This document shows positions 652-62,576 of a stretch of DNA of 64,000 nt, piece by piece. Numbering within the stretch: the first letter of the stretch is position 1; the number at the start of each line of letters is the position of its first letter. The position numbers were made by a program, and so were the translations under genes. The notes beneath the pieces were generated by a model. That model had not been told where the DNA came from. It did no database searches and worked only from the letters and a program-made list of their open reading frames with translations. Origin of the DNA: Solirubrobacterales bacterium (GTDB taxonomy: Bacteria; Actinomycetota; Thermoleophilia; Solirubrobacterales; Solirubrobacteraceae); the NCBI GenBank assembly GCA_019240115.1, contig JAFAYV010000087.1:1-64000 (forward strand). The letters are read 5' to 3'.

Positions 652-1098
652 CTACCGCGCGTCCGGGGCCGTGGCAGGGGCCACCGATGCGTCTTGGTGC
701 GGCATGTCGAAGCGCGCCACCGTGAACGCGATCAGCACCGGCACGTGCACGGCGTAGACGACAAGCGAGAGGGTCAGCACGACCAGCGTCCCGCCCGAGA
801 GGCCGTCGTACAGAAAGGCGTACAGGATCAGGCCGGCGGTGACGGCGTAGGCGAGAACGGCCCAACGGGCGATCTGGAAGAAGCGATTCCAGTTGAAGCC
901 CGCGACGCGGGACAGCGCGAGGAGGTTGCCCGTGAGCAGCGCGGCCGAGAGCGCCAGGAGCACCACCGCGGGCGCGAGCGGGACGTGCTCGGGCAGGTGC
1001 GCGGACAGGTAGATGCCCCCGGCCACGATCAGCGCCAGGGACGCCATTCCGACCTCGGTGACCGGCGGCAGCCGGCGCTCGGTGGACGCCGAGCTCAT
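652..1098 (-). CDS. Small four-helix membrane protein, unknown function
   Basis: This is a 148-residue protein with about four hydrophobic segments, at roughly residues 16-33, 42-62, 78-97 and 103-126. The N-terminus and C-terminus are hydrophilic. I do not recognise the family. The ATG start at 1098 lies inside the first unit of a 23-bp triplicated repeat and overlaps the TGA of an 8-codon mini-ORF (ATGA). No Shine-Dalgarno sequence is visible, so translation probably depends on coupling to the upstream membrane protein gene (1141-1761). The pair, together with the cytochrome c lipoprotein further upstream, runs in one direction and may form a membrane redox group (inference only). Confidence 0.7.
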   Translation of the reverse strand: MSSASTERRLPPVTEVGMASLALIVAGGIYLSAHLPEHVPLAPAVVLLALSAALLTGNLLALSRVAGFNWNRFFQIARWAVLAYAVTAGLILYAFLYDGLSGGTLVVLTLSLVVYAVHVPVLIAFTVARFDMPHQDASVAPATAPDAR

Positions 1099-1157
1099 CC
1101 GGAGGCCAATCCCGAGCTCATCCGGAGGCCAATCCCGAGCTCAACCGGAGGCCAATC
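1089..1157. repeat. Three tandem 23-bp repeats spanning a gene junction
   Basis: Units lie at 1089-1111, 1112-1134 and 1135-1157. Units 1 and 2 are identical; unit 3 differs by one base (CAACC for CATCC). On the minus strand each unit contains a start overlapping a stop (ATGA in units 1 and 2, TTGA in unit 3). Unit 3 supplies the stop of the upstream gene and unit 1 the start of the downstream gene. Between them, two 8-codon frames (1144-1118 from TTG, 1121-1095 from ATG) each encode (M/L)SSGLASG and end in TGA overlapping the next start. Confidence 0.9.
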
Positions 1158-1761
1158 TGGTCATGATGACGAGCGTCGCGATCTGCATCAGGCCGGTGAT
1201 CCCGGCCGAGTAGATGAAGCGCTTCATGAGCCGCTCGATCACCTCGGGTCGCGGATGGGGCTTCTTCAGCTCGATGAGGACGGCGATGTTCGCCGGCTCG
1301 AGCAGCCCCAGCGCGATGATCGCCATGACGCCGACGACCACGTAGCTCGCGACGACCCAACCGTGGTCGGGGCTGGAGGTCAGCACGAAGCCGAGCTTGT
1401 TGCCGAGCTGCCAGCCGGCGGCGAGCGCCACCGTGACCACGGTCGGCATGATCAGCACCATCTTCGGCATCAGCCGTGTGGTCAGCTCGATCCGTGCGGG
1501 GATCGACAGACGGCCGAGGATCGGACCGAGCACCAAGCCCACGAACAGATCGATGATCGTCCATGCGGCCCCGCCGACGACGTGCAGGAACATCAGTGGC
1601 CAGAGCTTGTTGACCGCGATCGCGACGATCAGCGCCACGAAGACGACCGCGACGCCGATCAGTCCCTTGCGAGGGACGACCTCGAACCCGATGCGAGCCG
1701 GCGGCGCGCCCGCCTGCTCCGGCGCTTGCGCGGGTCCGACGGTTATGGACGCCCCGGTCAT
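1141..1761 (-). CDS. Multi-pass membrane protein, DUF2269-like
   Basis: The protein has 206 residues. An Ala/Pro-rich N-terminal tail precedes about five hydrophobic segments (near residues 34-52, 56-80, 98-118, 136-156 and 185-203). The segment LMFLHVVGGAAWT, with a conserved-looking His before a Gly-rich helix, resembles the DUF2269/CopD-like integral membrane family. The resemblance is by eye and not decisive. The ATG at 1761 is the only good start. The C-terminus, RLASG, is encoded by the third unit of a 23-bp repeat, and the downstream four-helix membrane protein follows through two tiny coupled frames. A cytochrome c lipoprotein gene ends 126 bp upstream, in the same orientation. Confidence 0.6.
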   Translation of the reverse strand: MTGASITVGPAQAPEQAGAPPARIGFEVVPRKGLIGVAVVFVALIVAIAVNKLWPLMFLHVVGGAAWTIIDLFVGLVLGPILGRLSIPARIELTTRLMPKMVLIMPTVVTVALAAGWQLGNKLGFVLTSSPDHGWVVASYVVVGVMAIIALGLLEPANIAVLIELKKPHPRPEVIERLMKRFIYSAGITGLMQIATLVIMTRLASG

Positions 1762-1887: not shown

Positions 1888-2223
1888 CTAGCGCGCGGAT
1901 GAGGCGACGAACCGGGCCACGGCGGCGATCTGTGCCTTGGACAACGACCCCGCGAAGCTGGGCATCGGCCCGCCACCCTGCGTGACCTGGCGAGCGACGG
2001 CAGCGACCGACGGCTTCAGCTCGTCGAGATTCGGACCGATGCTCCCCGTCGCGCCGGCGGCCGCCAACGTATGGCATCGCGAGCATCCGGCGCTCGCAAA
2101 GATCCGCTGGCCCGAGCTCGCCGCCGACCCGCCCGACGCAGCGGAGGACGATCCTCCGCACGCCGACACGGCGAGCCCGGCGACTACGGCGACCACGGCG
2201 ACGGTGGCCCGACGTCGCCTCAT
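1888..2223 (-). CDS. Lipoprotein c-type cytochrome
   Basis: This is a 111-residue mono-haem cytochrome c. Residues 1-21 form an Arg-rich lipoprotein signal peptide ending at Cys22 (VSAC), so the protein should be anchored to the outer face of the membrane. A Ser/Gly-rich linker leads to the haem-attachment motif CSRCH at residues 47-51. Met87 in GGPMPSF is a good candidate sixth ligand. Length and order (CxxCH, GPNLDEL, PMPSF) fit class I cytochromes resembling the cytochrome c domains of oxidases and dehydrogenases. It would carry electrons to or from a membrane oxidoreductase, and the partner is not evident. The downstream membrane proteins at 1141-1761 and 652-1098 may be functionally linked. 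Confidence 0.88.
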   Translation of the reverse strand: MRRRRATVAVVAVVAGLAVSACGGSSSAASGGSAASSGQRIFASAGCSRCHTLAAAGATGSIGPNLDELKPSVAAVARQVTQGGGPMPSFAGSLSKAQIAAVARFVASSAR

Positions 2224-25859: not shown

Positions 25860-25976
25860 GGCGCCGATGTTAAGGGTCCACGACTGGTCCGCGGCTGCAC
25901 TTCCAGGGCGACCGCTACCGGCTCTGCCTGAGGGTCTGAGCTGTTCGACGCGGGAGCGCTCGCCGCCGAGGCGAGT

Positions 25977-26088
25977 CCGGGTCGGGTTGCGGGTCCCGCG
26001 TCGGGTTGCGGGTCCCGCGTCGGTTGCGGGTCCGCGCCGGGTTGCGGGTCCGGGTCGGGTTGCGGGTCCGGGTCGGGTTGCGGGTCCG
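25977..26088. repeat. Six-copy 17-19-bp tandem repeat
   Basis: Six successive units share the core GGTTGCGGGTCC, with spacer variants GGGTCG, CGCGTCG and GCGCCG. The array fills the gap between the stop of the LLM oxidoreductase gene (26090) and the upstream region of the acyl-CoA ligase gene. No coding role is apparent, and it does not resemble a CRISPR because there are no unique spacers. Confidence 0.9.
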
Positions 26089-26089
26089 G

Positions 26090-39057: not shown

Positions 39058-39075
39058 GAACCGCAGATCGGGCTG

Positions 39076-39171
39076 GAGTCGCGCTCGGGCGCGCTCCAGC
39101 ATCCGATCGAGCCCGGGCCCGCGGAGTCGAGCTCGGCCGCGCTCCAGCATCCGATCGAGCCCGGGCCCGCG
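39076..39171. repeat. 48-bp tandem duplication
   Basis: 39076-39123 is repeated at 39124-39171 with a few mismatches near the left end; both copies contain GCTCCAGCATCCGATCGAGC and GCCCGGGCCCGCG. The repeat lies between the BLUF-like remnant and the HNH gene end and does not appear to be coding. With 38711-39211 counted together, no intact gene is present for about 500 bp. Confidence 0.9.
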
Positions 39172-39211
39172 GGCACGAGGCCTCGGCCGAGGCGGACGGG
39201 CGTCGGGCACC

Positions 39212-44229: not shown

Positions 44230-45225
44230 GTGGCGACCGTCCGGACCCTGGCACACGCGCGCGCACCGCAGCGGCGCGCCATCGACGCGGGCGTCGCGGA
44301 CTGGTATGCCCGGCGTCGCTACCGGGCCGGACAGTTCGACCTCGACCGGCTGCGCGCCGCCAAGGCCGGAATCGGGGTCACGGTCATCATCCCCACCAAG
44401 GATTGCGGCGCCACCATCGCCGAGGTCATCGGGCGCACCGTCGCGCCGCTCGCCGACCGCGGCCTCGTCGACGCGCTCGTCGTCGTCGACGCCGCCTCGG
44501 AAGACGGCACCGCCGAGCGGGCGGCCGCCGCCGGCGCCCGGGCGCTGCAGCAGGACGAGCTGTGTCCCGAGCTCGGGCCCGCCGCGGGCAAGGGAGACGC
44601 GATGTGGCGCGCGCTGCAGGTGACCGGGGGCGAGGTCGTCTGCTTCCTCGACGGCGACACGATCGACCCGCGCCCCGAGCATCTCCAGGGGTTGCTCGGA
44701 CCGCTGCTGACCGACGACTGGCTACACCTGGTCAAGGGGGCGTTCGAGCGTCCGATGGACACCGGCCGGGTGACGCTGCCGCACGAGGGCGGACGCGTGA
44801 CCGAGCTGATGGCCCGCCCCCTGCTCAACTACCATGTGCCCGCACTCGCGGGCTTCGCGCAGCCGCTGGCGGGCGAGTTCTCGGCGCGGCGCGAGCTGCT
44901 CGAGGAGATAGCGTTTCCCGTCGGCTACGGGGTCGAGATCGCGGTGCTGATCGAGGCCTACCGTCGGCGGGGGCTCGACGCGCTCGCCGAATGCCATCTC
45001 GGGACCCGCCAGAACCGCCACCAGCCGCTCCGGGCGCTCGGCGAGATGGCCTACGCCGTCCTCGCCGCGGTGCAGGTGCGGCTGTCCGGTGTGCAGCCGC
45101 ACGCCGACGCGATCGGACGCTACGTCCGCCCGTGGGAGGACGCCGCGATCGCGACCGTCGCGGTCGGCGAGCGGCCTCCGATCGGGGCTGGCCGCGCCGA
45201 CGCCGCGCCCGCCGAGGCCGTCTGA
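44230..45225 (+). CDS. gpgS: Glucosyl-3-phosphoglycerate synthase
   Basis: Transfers glucose from a nucleotide sugar to 3-phosphoglycerate, the first step of glucosylglycerate and methylglucose lipopolysaccharide synthesis. The 331-residue GT81/GT-A protein has VTVIIPTKDCGATIAEVI, VVVDAASEDGTAERAA, GPAAGKGDAMWRALQ, the metal-binding site FLDGDTIDP, and VKGAFERP, LAGEFSARRELLEEIAFPVGYGVEIAVLIEAY. GTG at 44230 begins the N-terminal helix (MATVRTLAHARAP). Its final codons and stop lie in the first unit of a 34-bp triplicate. The partner phosphatase GpgP is not present. Confidence 0.94.
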   Translation: MATVRTLAHARAPQRRAIDAGVADWYARRRYRAGQFDLDRLRAAKAGIGVTVIIPTKDCGATIAEVIGRTVAPLADRGLVDALVVVDAASEDGTAERAAAAGARALQQDELCPELGPAAGKGDAMWRALQVTGGEVVCFLDGDTIDPRPEHLQGLLGPLLTDDWLHLVKGAFERPMDTGRVTLPHEGGRVTELMARPLLNYHVPALAGFAQPLAGEFSARRELLEEIAFPVGYGVEIAVLIEAYRRRGLDALAECHLGTRQNRHQPLRALGEMAYAVLAAVQVRLSGVQPHADAIGRYVRPWEDAAIATVAVGERPPIGAGRADAAPAEAV

Positions 45226-45312
45226 GAGCGTCGCAGCCATCCCCGCCGAAGTCGCCTGAGAGCGTCGCAGCCATCCCCGCCGAAGCCGTCTGAGAGCGTC
45301 GCAGCCATCCCC
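45211..45312. repeat. Three tandem 34-bp repeats duplicating the gpgS stop
   Basis: Units 45211-45244, 45245-45278 and 45279-45312 each read GCCGARGYCGYCTGAGAGCG then TCGCAGCCATCCCC. Each carries a copy of the gpgS terminus with its TGA. The 34-bp period puts the copies in different frames relative to the following lipoprotein gene. Confidence 0.92.
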
Positions 45313-60232: not shown

Positions 60233-62576
60233 GCGAGCCCGGCGGCTCCTGCGCCGCCGGCTGCGCCTGCTGGCGTTCGGCCTGAGCGTCATCGGGGCGG
60301 TGCCCGCCGTGGCGCTCGCCGCCGCACCGGCCGGGTGGCCGGGGGTGCACTCGATCGCGGGTGCCCGGACACGCTCGCCGATGGCATCGCTGAGCGGATG
60401 GCTCAGTCCCACCGTCGCCTTCCCCGAACGCGACCTGGTGCTCCGAACCACCGCTCGCAGGGCCCTGAGCGTGTCTCGTGTGCACATCAGCGAGAACGGC
60501 CAGACGATCCATCCGTCTCGGCTGACGCGCCTGTCAGCACCCGCGCCCGGCGATCTCGGGGTCATGTTCGTCATCCAGCGCAGCGCGAGCATGGGCGGTG
60601 GCGGCCTGGCGGCGGCAGTGTCCGCTGCGCGGGCGATCGGCACGAGCAAGCCCGGAAACGAGCGGTTCGGGGCGATCGCGTTCGCTGCCCGGCCATCGGT
60701 TCTCCTTGGGTTGACCACCGACCGACGCGCGATCGACCGGCGCCTGCGGACGACGCCGGCCGTCGACAGTGCTGCCTGCAATGTCGCAGCGGCGACCCAG
60801 CAGGCGCTCGCCCGCTTGGCGGCGGCGAAGACGCGGCTGGGCGTCGTCGTGGTCATCTCCGACGGCGTCGGCGGCGCCGAGAGGACGTCCGGCCCGACGG
60901 CGGCCACGGTTCGGGCGGCGGCCGCGCGCGCGGACGCCCCCGTGATCACGGTCGGGCTCCGCGACGAGCGGGCAACGACGGCGTCGCTCACCGCCCTGGC
61001 GCATTCGGCTCCGGGAAGTTTCGTCCTGTCGTCGGAGGGACGCCTCTCGTCGACATTGACGTCGACGCTGCGCACCGTCGCCGATCGGCACTACGTGCTC
61101 GGCTATCGCTCGCACGCTCCGGCCGGATCGTCCGTTGCGATCACGGCCGTCGCCTCCGGGCTGTCGGGCCAGCTCAACGCCAGCTACCGAGTCCCCGGGA
61201 TCGCGCCCACCCCCCCCTCCCGGCCGCAGCCCAGCGCAGGCGCGTCGGCACCGACACCGAGCGCGCCGCGGCCCGCCGCGCCGACGTCGGCCCCCGCTTC
61301 GCGATCAGCCACCCCCCCGTCGTCCTCCGGGACGCCACCGCCCTCGACGACGCGGGCGCCCTCACCGCCCTCGACGACGCGGGCGCCCTCACCGGCCTCG
61401 ACGACGCGGTCGCGGTCGCCGCAGGCGAGCTCTCGAGGAATCCCGGGGTCGAAGTCCGGCACGCCTGGGCGGCCGGCGGCGACGTCGGGACCCACCGCAC
61501 CGGTGGGTCCGTCGGCGGCGGGCGGTCGGGACCCGAGCACCGACGCGCCGCATCTCGTAGGAGAGCCGGAGCCCAATTTCGGGAGAGAGCTTCCCCCGTC
61601 CCCGATGCGCACGACGTCCTTCTGGTCGTCGGGGGTCGCCGTCCCGGCGGTGGCGATCGTCTGCGCGCTGCTGGGCGCGCTGGCGCTCTGGTTCGTGCTG
61701 CGGCGGCCACAAGGGGCGACCGTGCGGGCGCGGGTCGGTAACTTCCTGCCGATCGGAGGCGGGAACGACGGGGCGGAAGCGCCGTCGCCGAGCCGGCGCT
61801 CGCGGCTGCTGGGCTCGCTGGAGCGGGGTTCGTGGTGGCCGACGTTCGTGGAGGCCGTCGAGATCTCCCGCAATCCGCGCCCACCGATGTCCCTGGTCAA
61901 GCGCGCGGCTGCCGGTGGAATGGTCGCCGGGCTCCTCCTCGGGCTGATCTCCGGCTCGGTGCTGGCGGCGCTCGCACCGCTCTTGTTGTGGCCGTTCGTG
62001 CTACGGGCGCTCGTGCTGCGCGCCGCCCGCAAGCAGCGAGACCGATTCCGGGACACGCTTCCCGGCTACCTCCAGGACATGGCCAGCGCGATCCGCGTCG
62101 GGCGCAGCTTCGCCGGCGCACTGGCCGCCGTCGCCTCCGACGCCGAGGAGCCGACGCGCTCTGAGCTCGAGCGAGCCGCCACCGACGAGGCCCTCGGCCG
62201 ACCCCTGGAGGAGTCGCTGGAGGCGGTCGGCAGGCGCATGCTCTGCCCCGACATGGACCAGGTCGCTCTGGTGGCCGAGCTGAACCGCCGTTCGGGCTCC
62301 AACGTCGCTGAGGCGCTGGACCGGGTCGCCGACGGTGCGCGCGAGCGAACGGACCTGAGGCGCGAGATGGGGGCCCTGACCGCCCAGGCGAAGATGTCCA
62401 GCTCGGTGCTGACGGCGCTGCCGGTCGTGGTGCTGATGGGCCTCGTTCTCCTCGCCCCGTCCTACGCACACCCACTGCTGCACTCGACGATGGGCTTCGT
62501 CGTGCTGCTTTTCGGCGCCGGCCTGATCGCCAGCGGTTGGAAGGTGATGAAGAAGATCACGAACATCGAGGCGTGA
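60225..62576 (+). CDS. tadB: VWA-TadB fusion: secreted VWA domain joined to T2SSF platform
   Basis: A 783-residue protein unlike plain TadB (about 300). Residues 1-33 are a signal peptide. About 110-300 form a von Willebrand A-like domain (LGVMFVIQRSASMGGG, FGAIAFAARPSVLLGLTTD, VVVVISDGVGG). The first MIDAS motif DxSxS is here QRSAS (Gln118 in place of Asp), though Asp213 of the later ISDG is present. A Pro/Ser/Thr-rich linker follows, about 325-470, with a 9-residue repeat (STTRAPSPx). A membrane helix is near 478-500. From about 560, a type II secretion F domain of TadB (FRDTLPGYLQDMASAIRVGRSFAGALAAV) has its final two helices. It is coupled to tadA. The VWA part should be outside the cell. 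Confidence 0.88.
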   Translation: MGERARRLLRRRLRLLAFGLSVIGAVPAVALAAAPAGWPGVHSIAGARTRSPMASLSGWLSPTVAFPERDLVLRTTARRALSVSRVHISENGQTIHPSRLTRLSAPAPGDLGVMFVIQRSASMGGGGLAAAVSAARAIGTSKPGNERFGAIAFAARPSVLLGLTTDRRAIDRRLRTTPAVDSAACNVAAATQQALARLAAAKTRLGVVVVISDGVGGAERTSGPTAATVRAAAARADAPVITVGLRDERATTASLTALAHSAPGSFVLSSEGRLSSTLTSTLRTVADRHYVLGYRSHAPAGSSVAITAVASGLSGQLNASYRVPGIAPTPPSRPQPSAGASAPTPSAPRPAAPTSAPASRSATPPSSSGTPPPSTTRAPSPPSTTRAPSPASTTRSRSPQASSRGIPGSKSGTPGRPAATSGPTAPVGPSAAGGRDPSTDAPHLVGEPEPNFGRELPPSPMRTTSFWSSGVAVPAVAIVCALLGALALWFVLRRPQGATVRARVGNFLPIGGGNDGAEAPSPSRRSRLLGSLERGSWWPTFVEAVEISRNPRPPMSLVKRAAAGGMVAGLLLGLISGSVLAALAPLLLWPFVLRALVLRAARKQRDRFRDTLPGYLQDMASAIRVGRSFAGALAAVASDAEEPTRSELERAATDEALGRPLEESLEAVGRRMLCPDMDQVALVAELNRRSGSNVAEALDRVADGARERTDLRREMGALTAQAKMSSSVLTALPVVVLMGLVLLAPSYAHPLLHSTMGFVVLLFGAGLIASGWKVMKKITNIEA
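61341..61421. repeat. Three 27-bp coding repeats in the VWA-TadB linker
   Basis: Units 61341-61367, 61368-61394 (identical) and a diverged 61395-61421 encode the linker peptide STTRAPSPP three times. They extend the Pro/Ser/Thr-rich spacer between the VWA domain and the membrane helix, in frame. Confidence 0.88.

What the first reader, a model, noticed from the sequence alone, without database searches (positions are those of the whole stretch)
1089..1157. A 23-bp triplication builds a relay of two 8-codon coupled mini-ORFs between two membrane protein genes
The minus-strand gene 1141-1761 stops in unit 3 (TTGA overlap). From that TTG an 8-codon frame (1144-1118) ends in TGA overlapping an ATG. 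A second identical 8-codon frame (1121-1095) ends in TGA overlapping the ATG of the downstream gene (1098). Each unit thus repeats a four-base start/stop overlap, so ribosomes could pass from gene to gene only by repeated termination-reinitiation. No Shine-Dalgarno site is visible. The copy number would then tune expression of the downstream protein.
Basis: partly seen in the sequence, partly recalled or inferred. Interest (0 to 1): 0.62.

Follow-up and report, generated by a model that had tools for sequence, protein, structure and literature searches.

The report
Duplicated stop-start overlap: mini-gene relay
Between two neighbouring bacterial genes that normally share a four-letter stop/start overlap, a 23-letter piece has been copied three times, so a ribosome can pass from one gene to the next through two tiny stepping-stone genes; the same arrangement recurs independently between at least ten other gene pairs of this genome, which would let serial re-starting of translation be measured.

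Summary
Minus-strand 1157-1089 holds three 23-bp units with one mismatch. The upstream gene (206 aa) stops in unit 1, two 8-codon frames follow (1144-1118 and 1121-1095), and the downstream gene starts at its only possible start, ATG 1098. Relatives show the ancestral state: 61 distinct orthologous junctions have no duplication, and 38 keep one 4-nt overlap. So the array is a recent local tandem duplication of a coupled junction.

It is not a one-off. In the 45% of the genome I could read, 12 [AGT]TGA junctions are tandemly duplicated. Ten still carry a complete mini-ORF chain, and 9 of 12 unit lengths are 2 mod 3, against 16 of 51 at other gene ends (p = 0.007). Cases include gatA-gatB and, outside that sample, hypF (8 copies, seven 7-codon mini-ORFs).

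Best reading: slippage-type duplication plus retention of lengths that keep proteins and coupling intact. Serial termination-reinitiation then carries ribosomes across; this step is inferred. Copy-number tuning is not supported. A simulation shows most random duplications keep a chain anyway. The nearest known case is the mycobacterial MIRU, whose 77- and 53-bp units are also 2 mod 3. It is a new variant of a known kind.

The parts
1141..1761 (-). Upstream gene, 206-aa membrane protein of unknown family (five predicted helices); last codon and TGA lie in unit 1
   Evidence: ORF list, gene caller, orthologs at 60-83% identity in the order, no Pfam or NCBIfam hit, low-to-moderate confidence model
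1135..1157 (-). Unit 1: GATTGGCCTCCGGTTGAGCTCGG, TTGA overlap (A-to-T relative to units 2 and 3; synonymous Gly in the upstream gene)
1112..1134 (-). Unit 2: GATTGGCCTCCGGATGAGCTCGG, ATGA overlap
1089..1111 (-). Unit 3: identical to unit 2; its ATGA holds the start of the downstream gene
1118..1144 (-). Mini-ORF 1, TTG start, 8 codons, TGA overlapping the next ATG
   Evidence: read from sequence; chain computed
1095..1121 (-). Mini-ORF 2, ATG start, 8 codons, TGA overlapping the downstream ATG
   Evidence: read from sequence; chain computed
652..1098 (-). Downstream gene, 148-aa membrane protein of unknown family (four predicted helices); ATG 1098 is the only in-frame start before the preceding stop, and R9-P11-P12 are conserved ahead of the internal Met18
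1888..2223 (-). Context: cytochrome c (cbb3-type III-like) gene upstream on the same strand
   Evidence: Pfam PF13442, PF00034

Best explanation
The array is a recent local tandem duplication (two extra copies) of an ancestral translationally coupled ATGA junction between two membrane-protein genes. The mini-ORFs are a mechanical consequence of a unit length of 2 mod 3: the start in one unit is read to the stop overlapping the start of the next unit, so neither protein changes and every step keeps a 4-nt stop/start overlap. Ribosomes that finish the upstream gene most likely reach the downstream gene by serial termination-reinitiation through the two 8-codon frames, probably less efficiently than across the single ancestral overlap. 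The event is one of many in this genome, which is unusually rich in short tandem duplications. Duplications at coupled junctions that are still there are mostly those that keep both proteins and the coupling. Shown: anatomy, ancestral state, recurrence, period excess. Inferred: that ribosomes use the relay, and that the period excess reflects selection.
For: Anatomy. Ancestral state: 61 distinct orthologous junctions, 38 with one 4-nt overlap, 7 with a 1-nt overlap, 16 other, none with a tandem duplication (examples). Start fixed at ATG 1098. Recurrence: complete relays of period 2 mod 3 between long genes in 1.80 Mb at 10 loci including the finding: inositol monophosphatase/zincin (20 bp), gatA/gatB (23 bp), amidohydrolase-like/cysteine dioxygenase (26 bp), glycosyltransferase-like pair (35 bp), sensor kinase-like/response regulator (38 bp), recC-like/UvrD-type helicase (38 bp), ArsR-like/SRPBCC-like (14 bp), two ATPases (17 bp, four minis), tsaB/rimI-like (17 bp). 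Beyond that sample, a SIS-domain-like gene to hypF with 8 copies of 20 bp and seven 7-codon minis. Orthologous junctions in relatives lack the arrays. Period 2 mod 3 in 9 of 12 duplicated [AGT]TGA junctions against 16 of 51 other duplicated gene ends, Fisher p = 0.007. Wide gaps nearly abolish coupling elsewhere: 38 nt costs 80-100% in E. coli (PMC10666635), so with a 42-nt gap and no SD a relay is the plausible route.
Against: No translation data. A random tandem duplication of a -4 junction keeps a chain in 79% of simulations, so chain-keeping alone is not evidence of selection; 10 of 12 relays against an expected 54% gives only p = 0.04, and 9 of 12 gives p = 0.13. The period test rests on small numbers, a home-made gene caller and 45% of the genome, and was framed after the first examples were seen. 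Five of the 11 relays carry a strong SD in every unit, so there the last start could be reached directly. Across 295 other genomes of the phylum, equal-spaced RTGAGC triples show no excess at period 20 (2 genomes) over period 22 (5 genomes).
Confidence: 0.6

Rival explanations
1. Neutral tandem duplication only: the mini-ORFs are passive by-products, and the downstream gene is started directly at the last ATG by SD-independent or weak-SD initiation, with no ribosome hand-over.
For: Short tandem arrays are abundant in this genome. A chain survives random duplication 79% of the time. Duplication rate at -4 junctions (12/242) resembles that at convergent gene ends (34/546). Some relay loci have a strong SD in each unit.
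Against: Period 2 mod 3 is over-represented only at coupled junctions (9/12 against 16/51). The finding, gatB and hypF have no clear SD at the last start and no alternative start.
Confidence: 0.27
2. Selected tuner: unit number is a heritable rheostat that sets the ratio of the two proteins.
For: Unit number differs among loci (2 to 8). Serial reinitiation would lower output step by step (inference).
Against: No copy-number variation within a species could be examined. No relative carries the array at this junction. No feature marks this gene pair as needing tuning.
Confidence: 0.08
3. Stop-codon readthrough: three units put both genes in one frame with one TGA, so a low level of fused protein is made.
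For: Frame from TGA 1143 to ATG 1098 is open (linker ARDWPPDELGIGLR).
Against: In-frame placement follows arithmetically from any two extra units of length 2 mod 3. It fails for the 2-copy relays (start at +25, +37) and the 8-copy hypF relay (+139), so it cannot explain the class. TGA-G is not a known readthrough context (own knowledge).
Confidence: 0.02
4. Assembly or binning artefact of a metagenome-assembled genome.
For: The contig comes from a fragmented genome (99 contigs), the array lies 1.1 kb from a contig end, and array density is unusually high for the genus.
Against: The array is 69 bp, shorter than a usual read (inference). Units differ by a substitution here and by several elsewhere. 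Independent relays occur in other genomes.
Confidence: 0.03

Closest known systems
Mycobacterial interspersed repetitive units (MIRU), as in senX3-regX3
   Same: Tandem repeats between co-oriented genes, each with an ORF joined to the next by a 4-nt stop/start overlap (review PMC12548453). Units of 77 and 53 bp in senX3-regX3 (PMC4213456), both 2 mod 3 like the 23-bp unit.
   Different: MIRUs are described as mobile and dispersed. This unit occurs at one locus only, is 23 bp, and arose from the junction itself; every relay of this genome has its own sequence.
Translational coupling by termination-reinitiation at ATGA overlaps
   Same: Each step is a 4-nt overlap of the kind shown to couple genes (PMC6728339, PMC10666635). 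Relatives keep the single overlap.
   Different: Here the overlap is repeated, so coupling would need several serial reinitiations over frames of only 8 codons.
Regulatory minigenes and short upstream ORFs within operons, for example the two-codon minigene ahead of txe
   Same: A very short ORF just upstream raises translation of the next gene, and the spacing matters (PMC8708949).
   Different: txe uses a two-codon ORF with its own SD, 15 nt away. Here two near-identical 8-codon ORFs overlap the genes on both sides and have no clear SD.

Membership tests
Translationally coupled -4 (ATGA-type) gene pair | Stop codon of one ORF overlaps the start of the next by 4 nt | tested here: met
   At each of the three steps (TTGA 1144-1141, ATGA 1121-1118, ATGA 1098-1095)
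Translationally coupled -4 (ATGA-type) gene pair | Direct 4-nt overlap between the two genes themselves | tested here: not met
   The gap is now +42 nt; the direct overlap is the state in relatives (38 of 61)
Translationally coupled -4 (ATGA-type) gene pair | Translation of the second gene depends on translation of the first | not testable with these tools
   Needs reporters or ribosome profiling
Translationally coupled -4 (ATGA-type) gene pair | No independent promoter between the genes | tested here: inconclusive
   No sigma-70-like site in 500-2400, but the scan does not cover other promoter types
MIRU | Repeat dispersed at many genomic sites | tested here: not met
   Unit found only at this locus in its own genome and nowhere in 27 genus relatives with up to 3 mismatches
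MIRU | Unit ORF coupled to its neighbours by 4-nt overlaps | tested here: met
   (sequence only)
MIRU | Unit of roughly 50-100 bp related in sequence to mycobacterial MIRU | tested here: not met
   Unit is 23 bp; sequence similarity to MIRU itself was not compared

The most novel reading that the evidence does not exclude
High-GC actinobacteria of this genus contain a recurrent, previously undescribed class of junction: coupled gene pairs whose stop/start overlap has been tandemly multiplied into relays of 1 to 7 mini-ORFs (about 4 to 19 codons). Ribosomes cross by serial termination-reinitiation, and a unit length of 2 mod 3 is kept by selection because it alone leaves both proteins and the coupling intact.
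Probability: 0.4. Interest if true: 0.72.

Novelty: new variant of a known kind. Interest (0 to 1): 0.55.

Why it matters
How far and how often a terminating ribosome can re-start is still debated: scanning against overlap only, 30S against 70S (review PMC12548453). One genome that carries natural relays with 1, 2, 4 and 7 intermediate mini-ORFs, some before genes such as gatB, next to relatives with a single overlap at the same junction, is a ready-made series for measuring loss per step. The 2 mod 3 rule also gives a simple genome-wide prediction, and it would explain why MIRU-like and newly arisen repeats are tolerated between coupled genes.

Tried and rejected
RNA structure across the junction: folding energy is that of shuffles (z = 0.28). 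Internal start at Met18 of the downstream protein (SD -5.4 kcal/mol): rejected because R9, P11 and P12 ahead of it are conserved. Chain-keeping as proof of selection: rejected by simulation. Excess conservation of the 4-nt overlap within arrays: not significant (4/40 against 43/211 variable columns, p = 0.18). Loss of NucS mismatch repair as the cause of the repeat-rich genome: NucS is present. Phylum-wide excess of period 20 over 22: not seen. Function of the two membrane proteins: no Pfam or NCBIfam match, no PDB fold match for the upstream one; the models are weak. Literature searches for tandem copies of stop/start overlaps other than MIRU found none in the library searched.

Full report
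Observation. The minus strand of 1157-1089 reads GATTGGCCTCCGGTTGAGCTCGG followed by two copies of GATTGGCCTCCGGATGAGCTCGG. TRF reports period 23, 3.0 copies, 97% match. The upstream gene (206 aa, 1761-1141) ends with TGA in unit 1. From the overlapping TTG an 8-codon frame runs to a TGA overlapping the ATG of unit 2. From that ATG a second 8-codon frame, identical but for the start codon, runs to a TGA overlapping ATG 1098, the start of the 148-aa downstream gene. All coordinates of the finding are correct. ATG 1098 is the only start codon in its frame back to the preceding stop. The R9/P11/P12 motif ahead of the internal Met18 is conserved in 18 homologs, so this start is very likely the true one. 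There is no clear Shine-Dalgarno site, no sigma-70-like promoter and no unusual RNA folding.

Ancestral state. The pair is conserved in relatives of the order Solirubrobacterales (record names). Among 61 distinct orthologous junctions, 38 have the plain 4-nt overlap, 7 a 1-nt overlap and 16 other spacings; none has a tandem duplication of 12 nt or more (examples). In a near relative (82% identity, L023) the junction reads ...GCGTCCGGATGAGCG. The unit occurs nowhere else in the genome and not in the genus, even with three mismatches. So two extra copies were added locally and recently; only one substitution separates the units.

What follows by arithmetic. Duplicating a piece that contains ATGA by a length of 2 mod 3 makes each start run to the stop that overlaps the next start. 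The mini-ORFs are therefore an automatic product, not an independent oddity.

Recurrence. I fetched 1.80 Mb (45%) of the same genome and called genes with a codon-usage caller: 1661 genes, 230 of 1061 same-strand pairs with a 4-nt overlap. Short tandem arrays are frequent: 604 at TRF score 50 or more, 72 with at least 2.8 copies. The latter density is 4.0 per 100 kb, against 0.25 in 400 kb of another species of the genus (G011) and 0.9 in loci of relatives. Scanning gene ends for a duplicated stop context gave 12 duplicated [AGT]TGA junctions with a close same-strand neighbour. Ten carry a complete mini-ORF chain (nine with period 2 mod 3, one with period 22 where a further ATGA closes the chain), one keeps the coupling by an in-frame extension, and one is broken. 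One further relay (tsaB/rimI-like, 17 bp) was found by the TRF route. The loci include gatA-gatB (23 bp, 8+8 codons), a sensor kinase-like gene with a response regulator, a recC-like gene with a UvrD-type helicase, and others. A pattern search then exposed a stretch not in the sample: a SIS-domain-like gene followed by eight copies of a 20-bp unit, seven 7-codon mini-ORFs, and hypF, whose only start is the last ATG, 136 nt after the upstream stop. At gatB, 25 genus relatives have no repeat and mostly a single 4-nt overlap; the hypF junctions of relatives are likewise often plain overlaps and show no such array. Junctions of eight other relay loci in up to three relatives also lack the array. 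The relays therefore arose independently, many times, in this lineage.

Other species. In 28 genomes of the genus I searched RTGAGC three times with variable gaps and kept equal-spaced, at least 75% identical units: periods 0/1/2 mod 3 numbered 16/4/13. The listing was truncated, and I transcribed only rows that looked repetitive, so this is indicative only; the 0 class includes repeats inside genes. One such array (G001, 35 bp) is a relay between two called genes, and G315 from another family has 4-codon minis (MSPR*) between an isomerase-like gene and a TetR gene. Several other arrays of period 2 mod 3 were not at clear gene junctions. Across 295 other genomes of the phylum such triples are rare, with no excess at period 20 over 22.

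Is there selection? At duplicated [AGT]TGA junctions the period is 2 mod 3 in 9 of 12; at all other duplicated gene ends in 16 of 51 (Fisher p = 0.007). On the other side, simulated random tandem duplications of the 230 -4 junctions keep a coupling chain in 79% of cases (2 mod 3: 98%; 1 mod 3: 58% through two-unit minis; 0 mod 3: 94% as N-terminal extension), so an intact chain is the default. The excess of 2 mod 3 over 0 mod 3 would then reflect avoidance of changes to the downstream protein. Numbers are small, and the test was framed after the first examples. I take it as moderate evidence.

Mechanism. In E. coli, moving the stop 38 nt upstream cuts reinitiation by 80-100% (PMC10666635), and a review places efficient coupling at -4 to +3 nt (PMC12548453). 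With a 42-nt gap and no SD, the two mini-ORFs offer the route by which coupling could persist; each step adds loss. The nearest precedent is the MIRU family, whose ORFs join neighbours by 4-nt overlaps; its senX3-regX3 units of 77 and 53 bp (PMC4213456) obey the same 2 mod 3 rule. Five of the 11 relays have a strong SD in every unit and six, including this one, gatB and hypF, do not. That ribosomes actually use the relay is inference.

Limits. The genome is a fragmented assembly, no translation data exist, and the functions of the two membrane proteins remain unknown. Copy-number tuning is possible but unsupported.

Noticed in passing
whole genome sample, L099-L198 and window: The genome is unusually rich in short tandem arrays (4.0 per 100 kb with at least 2.8 copies, against 0.25 in a genus relative). 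The cause is unknown; NucS is present.
   Followed up: partly
L281 (G000:C51:54262-54407): Eight copies of a 20-bp unit give seven 7-codon mini-ORFs between a SIS-domain-like gene and hypF, with no Shine-Dalgarno site at any start.
   Followed up: partly
L288 (G315): In another actinobacterial family, 11-bp units make 4-codon mini-ORFs (MSPR*, MSPR*, VIPR*) between a sugar-isomerase-like gene and a TetR gene.
   Followed up: partly
L209 and L211 (G009): At the sensor kinase/response regulator junction a relative carries a different, roughly 21-bp repeat that looks in frame with the start of the response regulator, so the same junction varies in another way.
   Followed up: no
window 45208-45312, 25971-26089, 39075-39172, 61336-61413: Other sizeable tandem arrays in the window: 34 bp x3.1 overlapping a gene end, 18 bp x6.6 in a same-strand gap, 48 bp x2 outside called genes, 27 bp x2.9 inside a gene.
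   Followed up: no
window 652-1761: The two membrane proteins form a conserved pair next to a cytochrome c gene and match no Pfam or NCBIfam family.
   Followed up: partly
L020/L022 (G011): In one complete relative the downstream gene of this pair carries an in-frame stop and the upstream match is split in two, so the pair looks decayed there.
   Followed up: no
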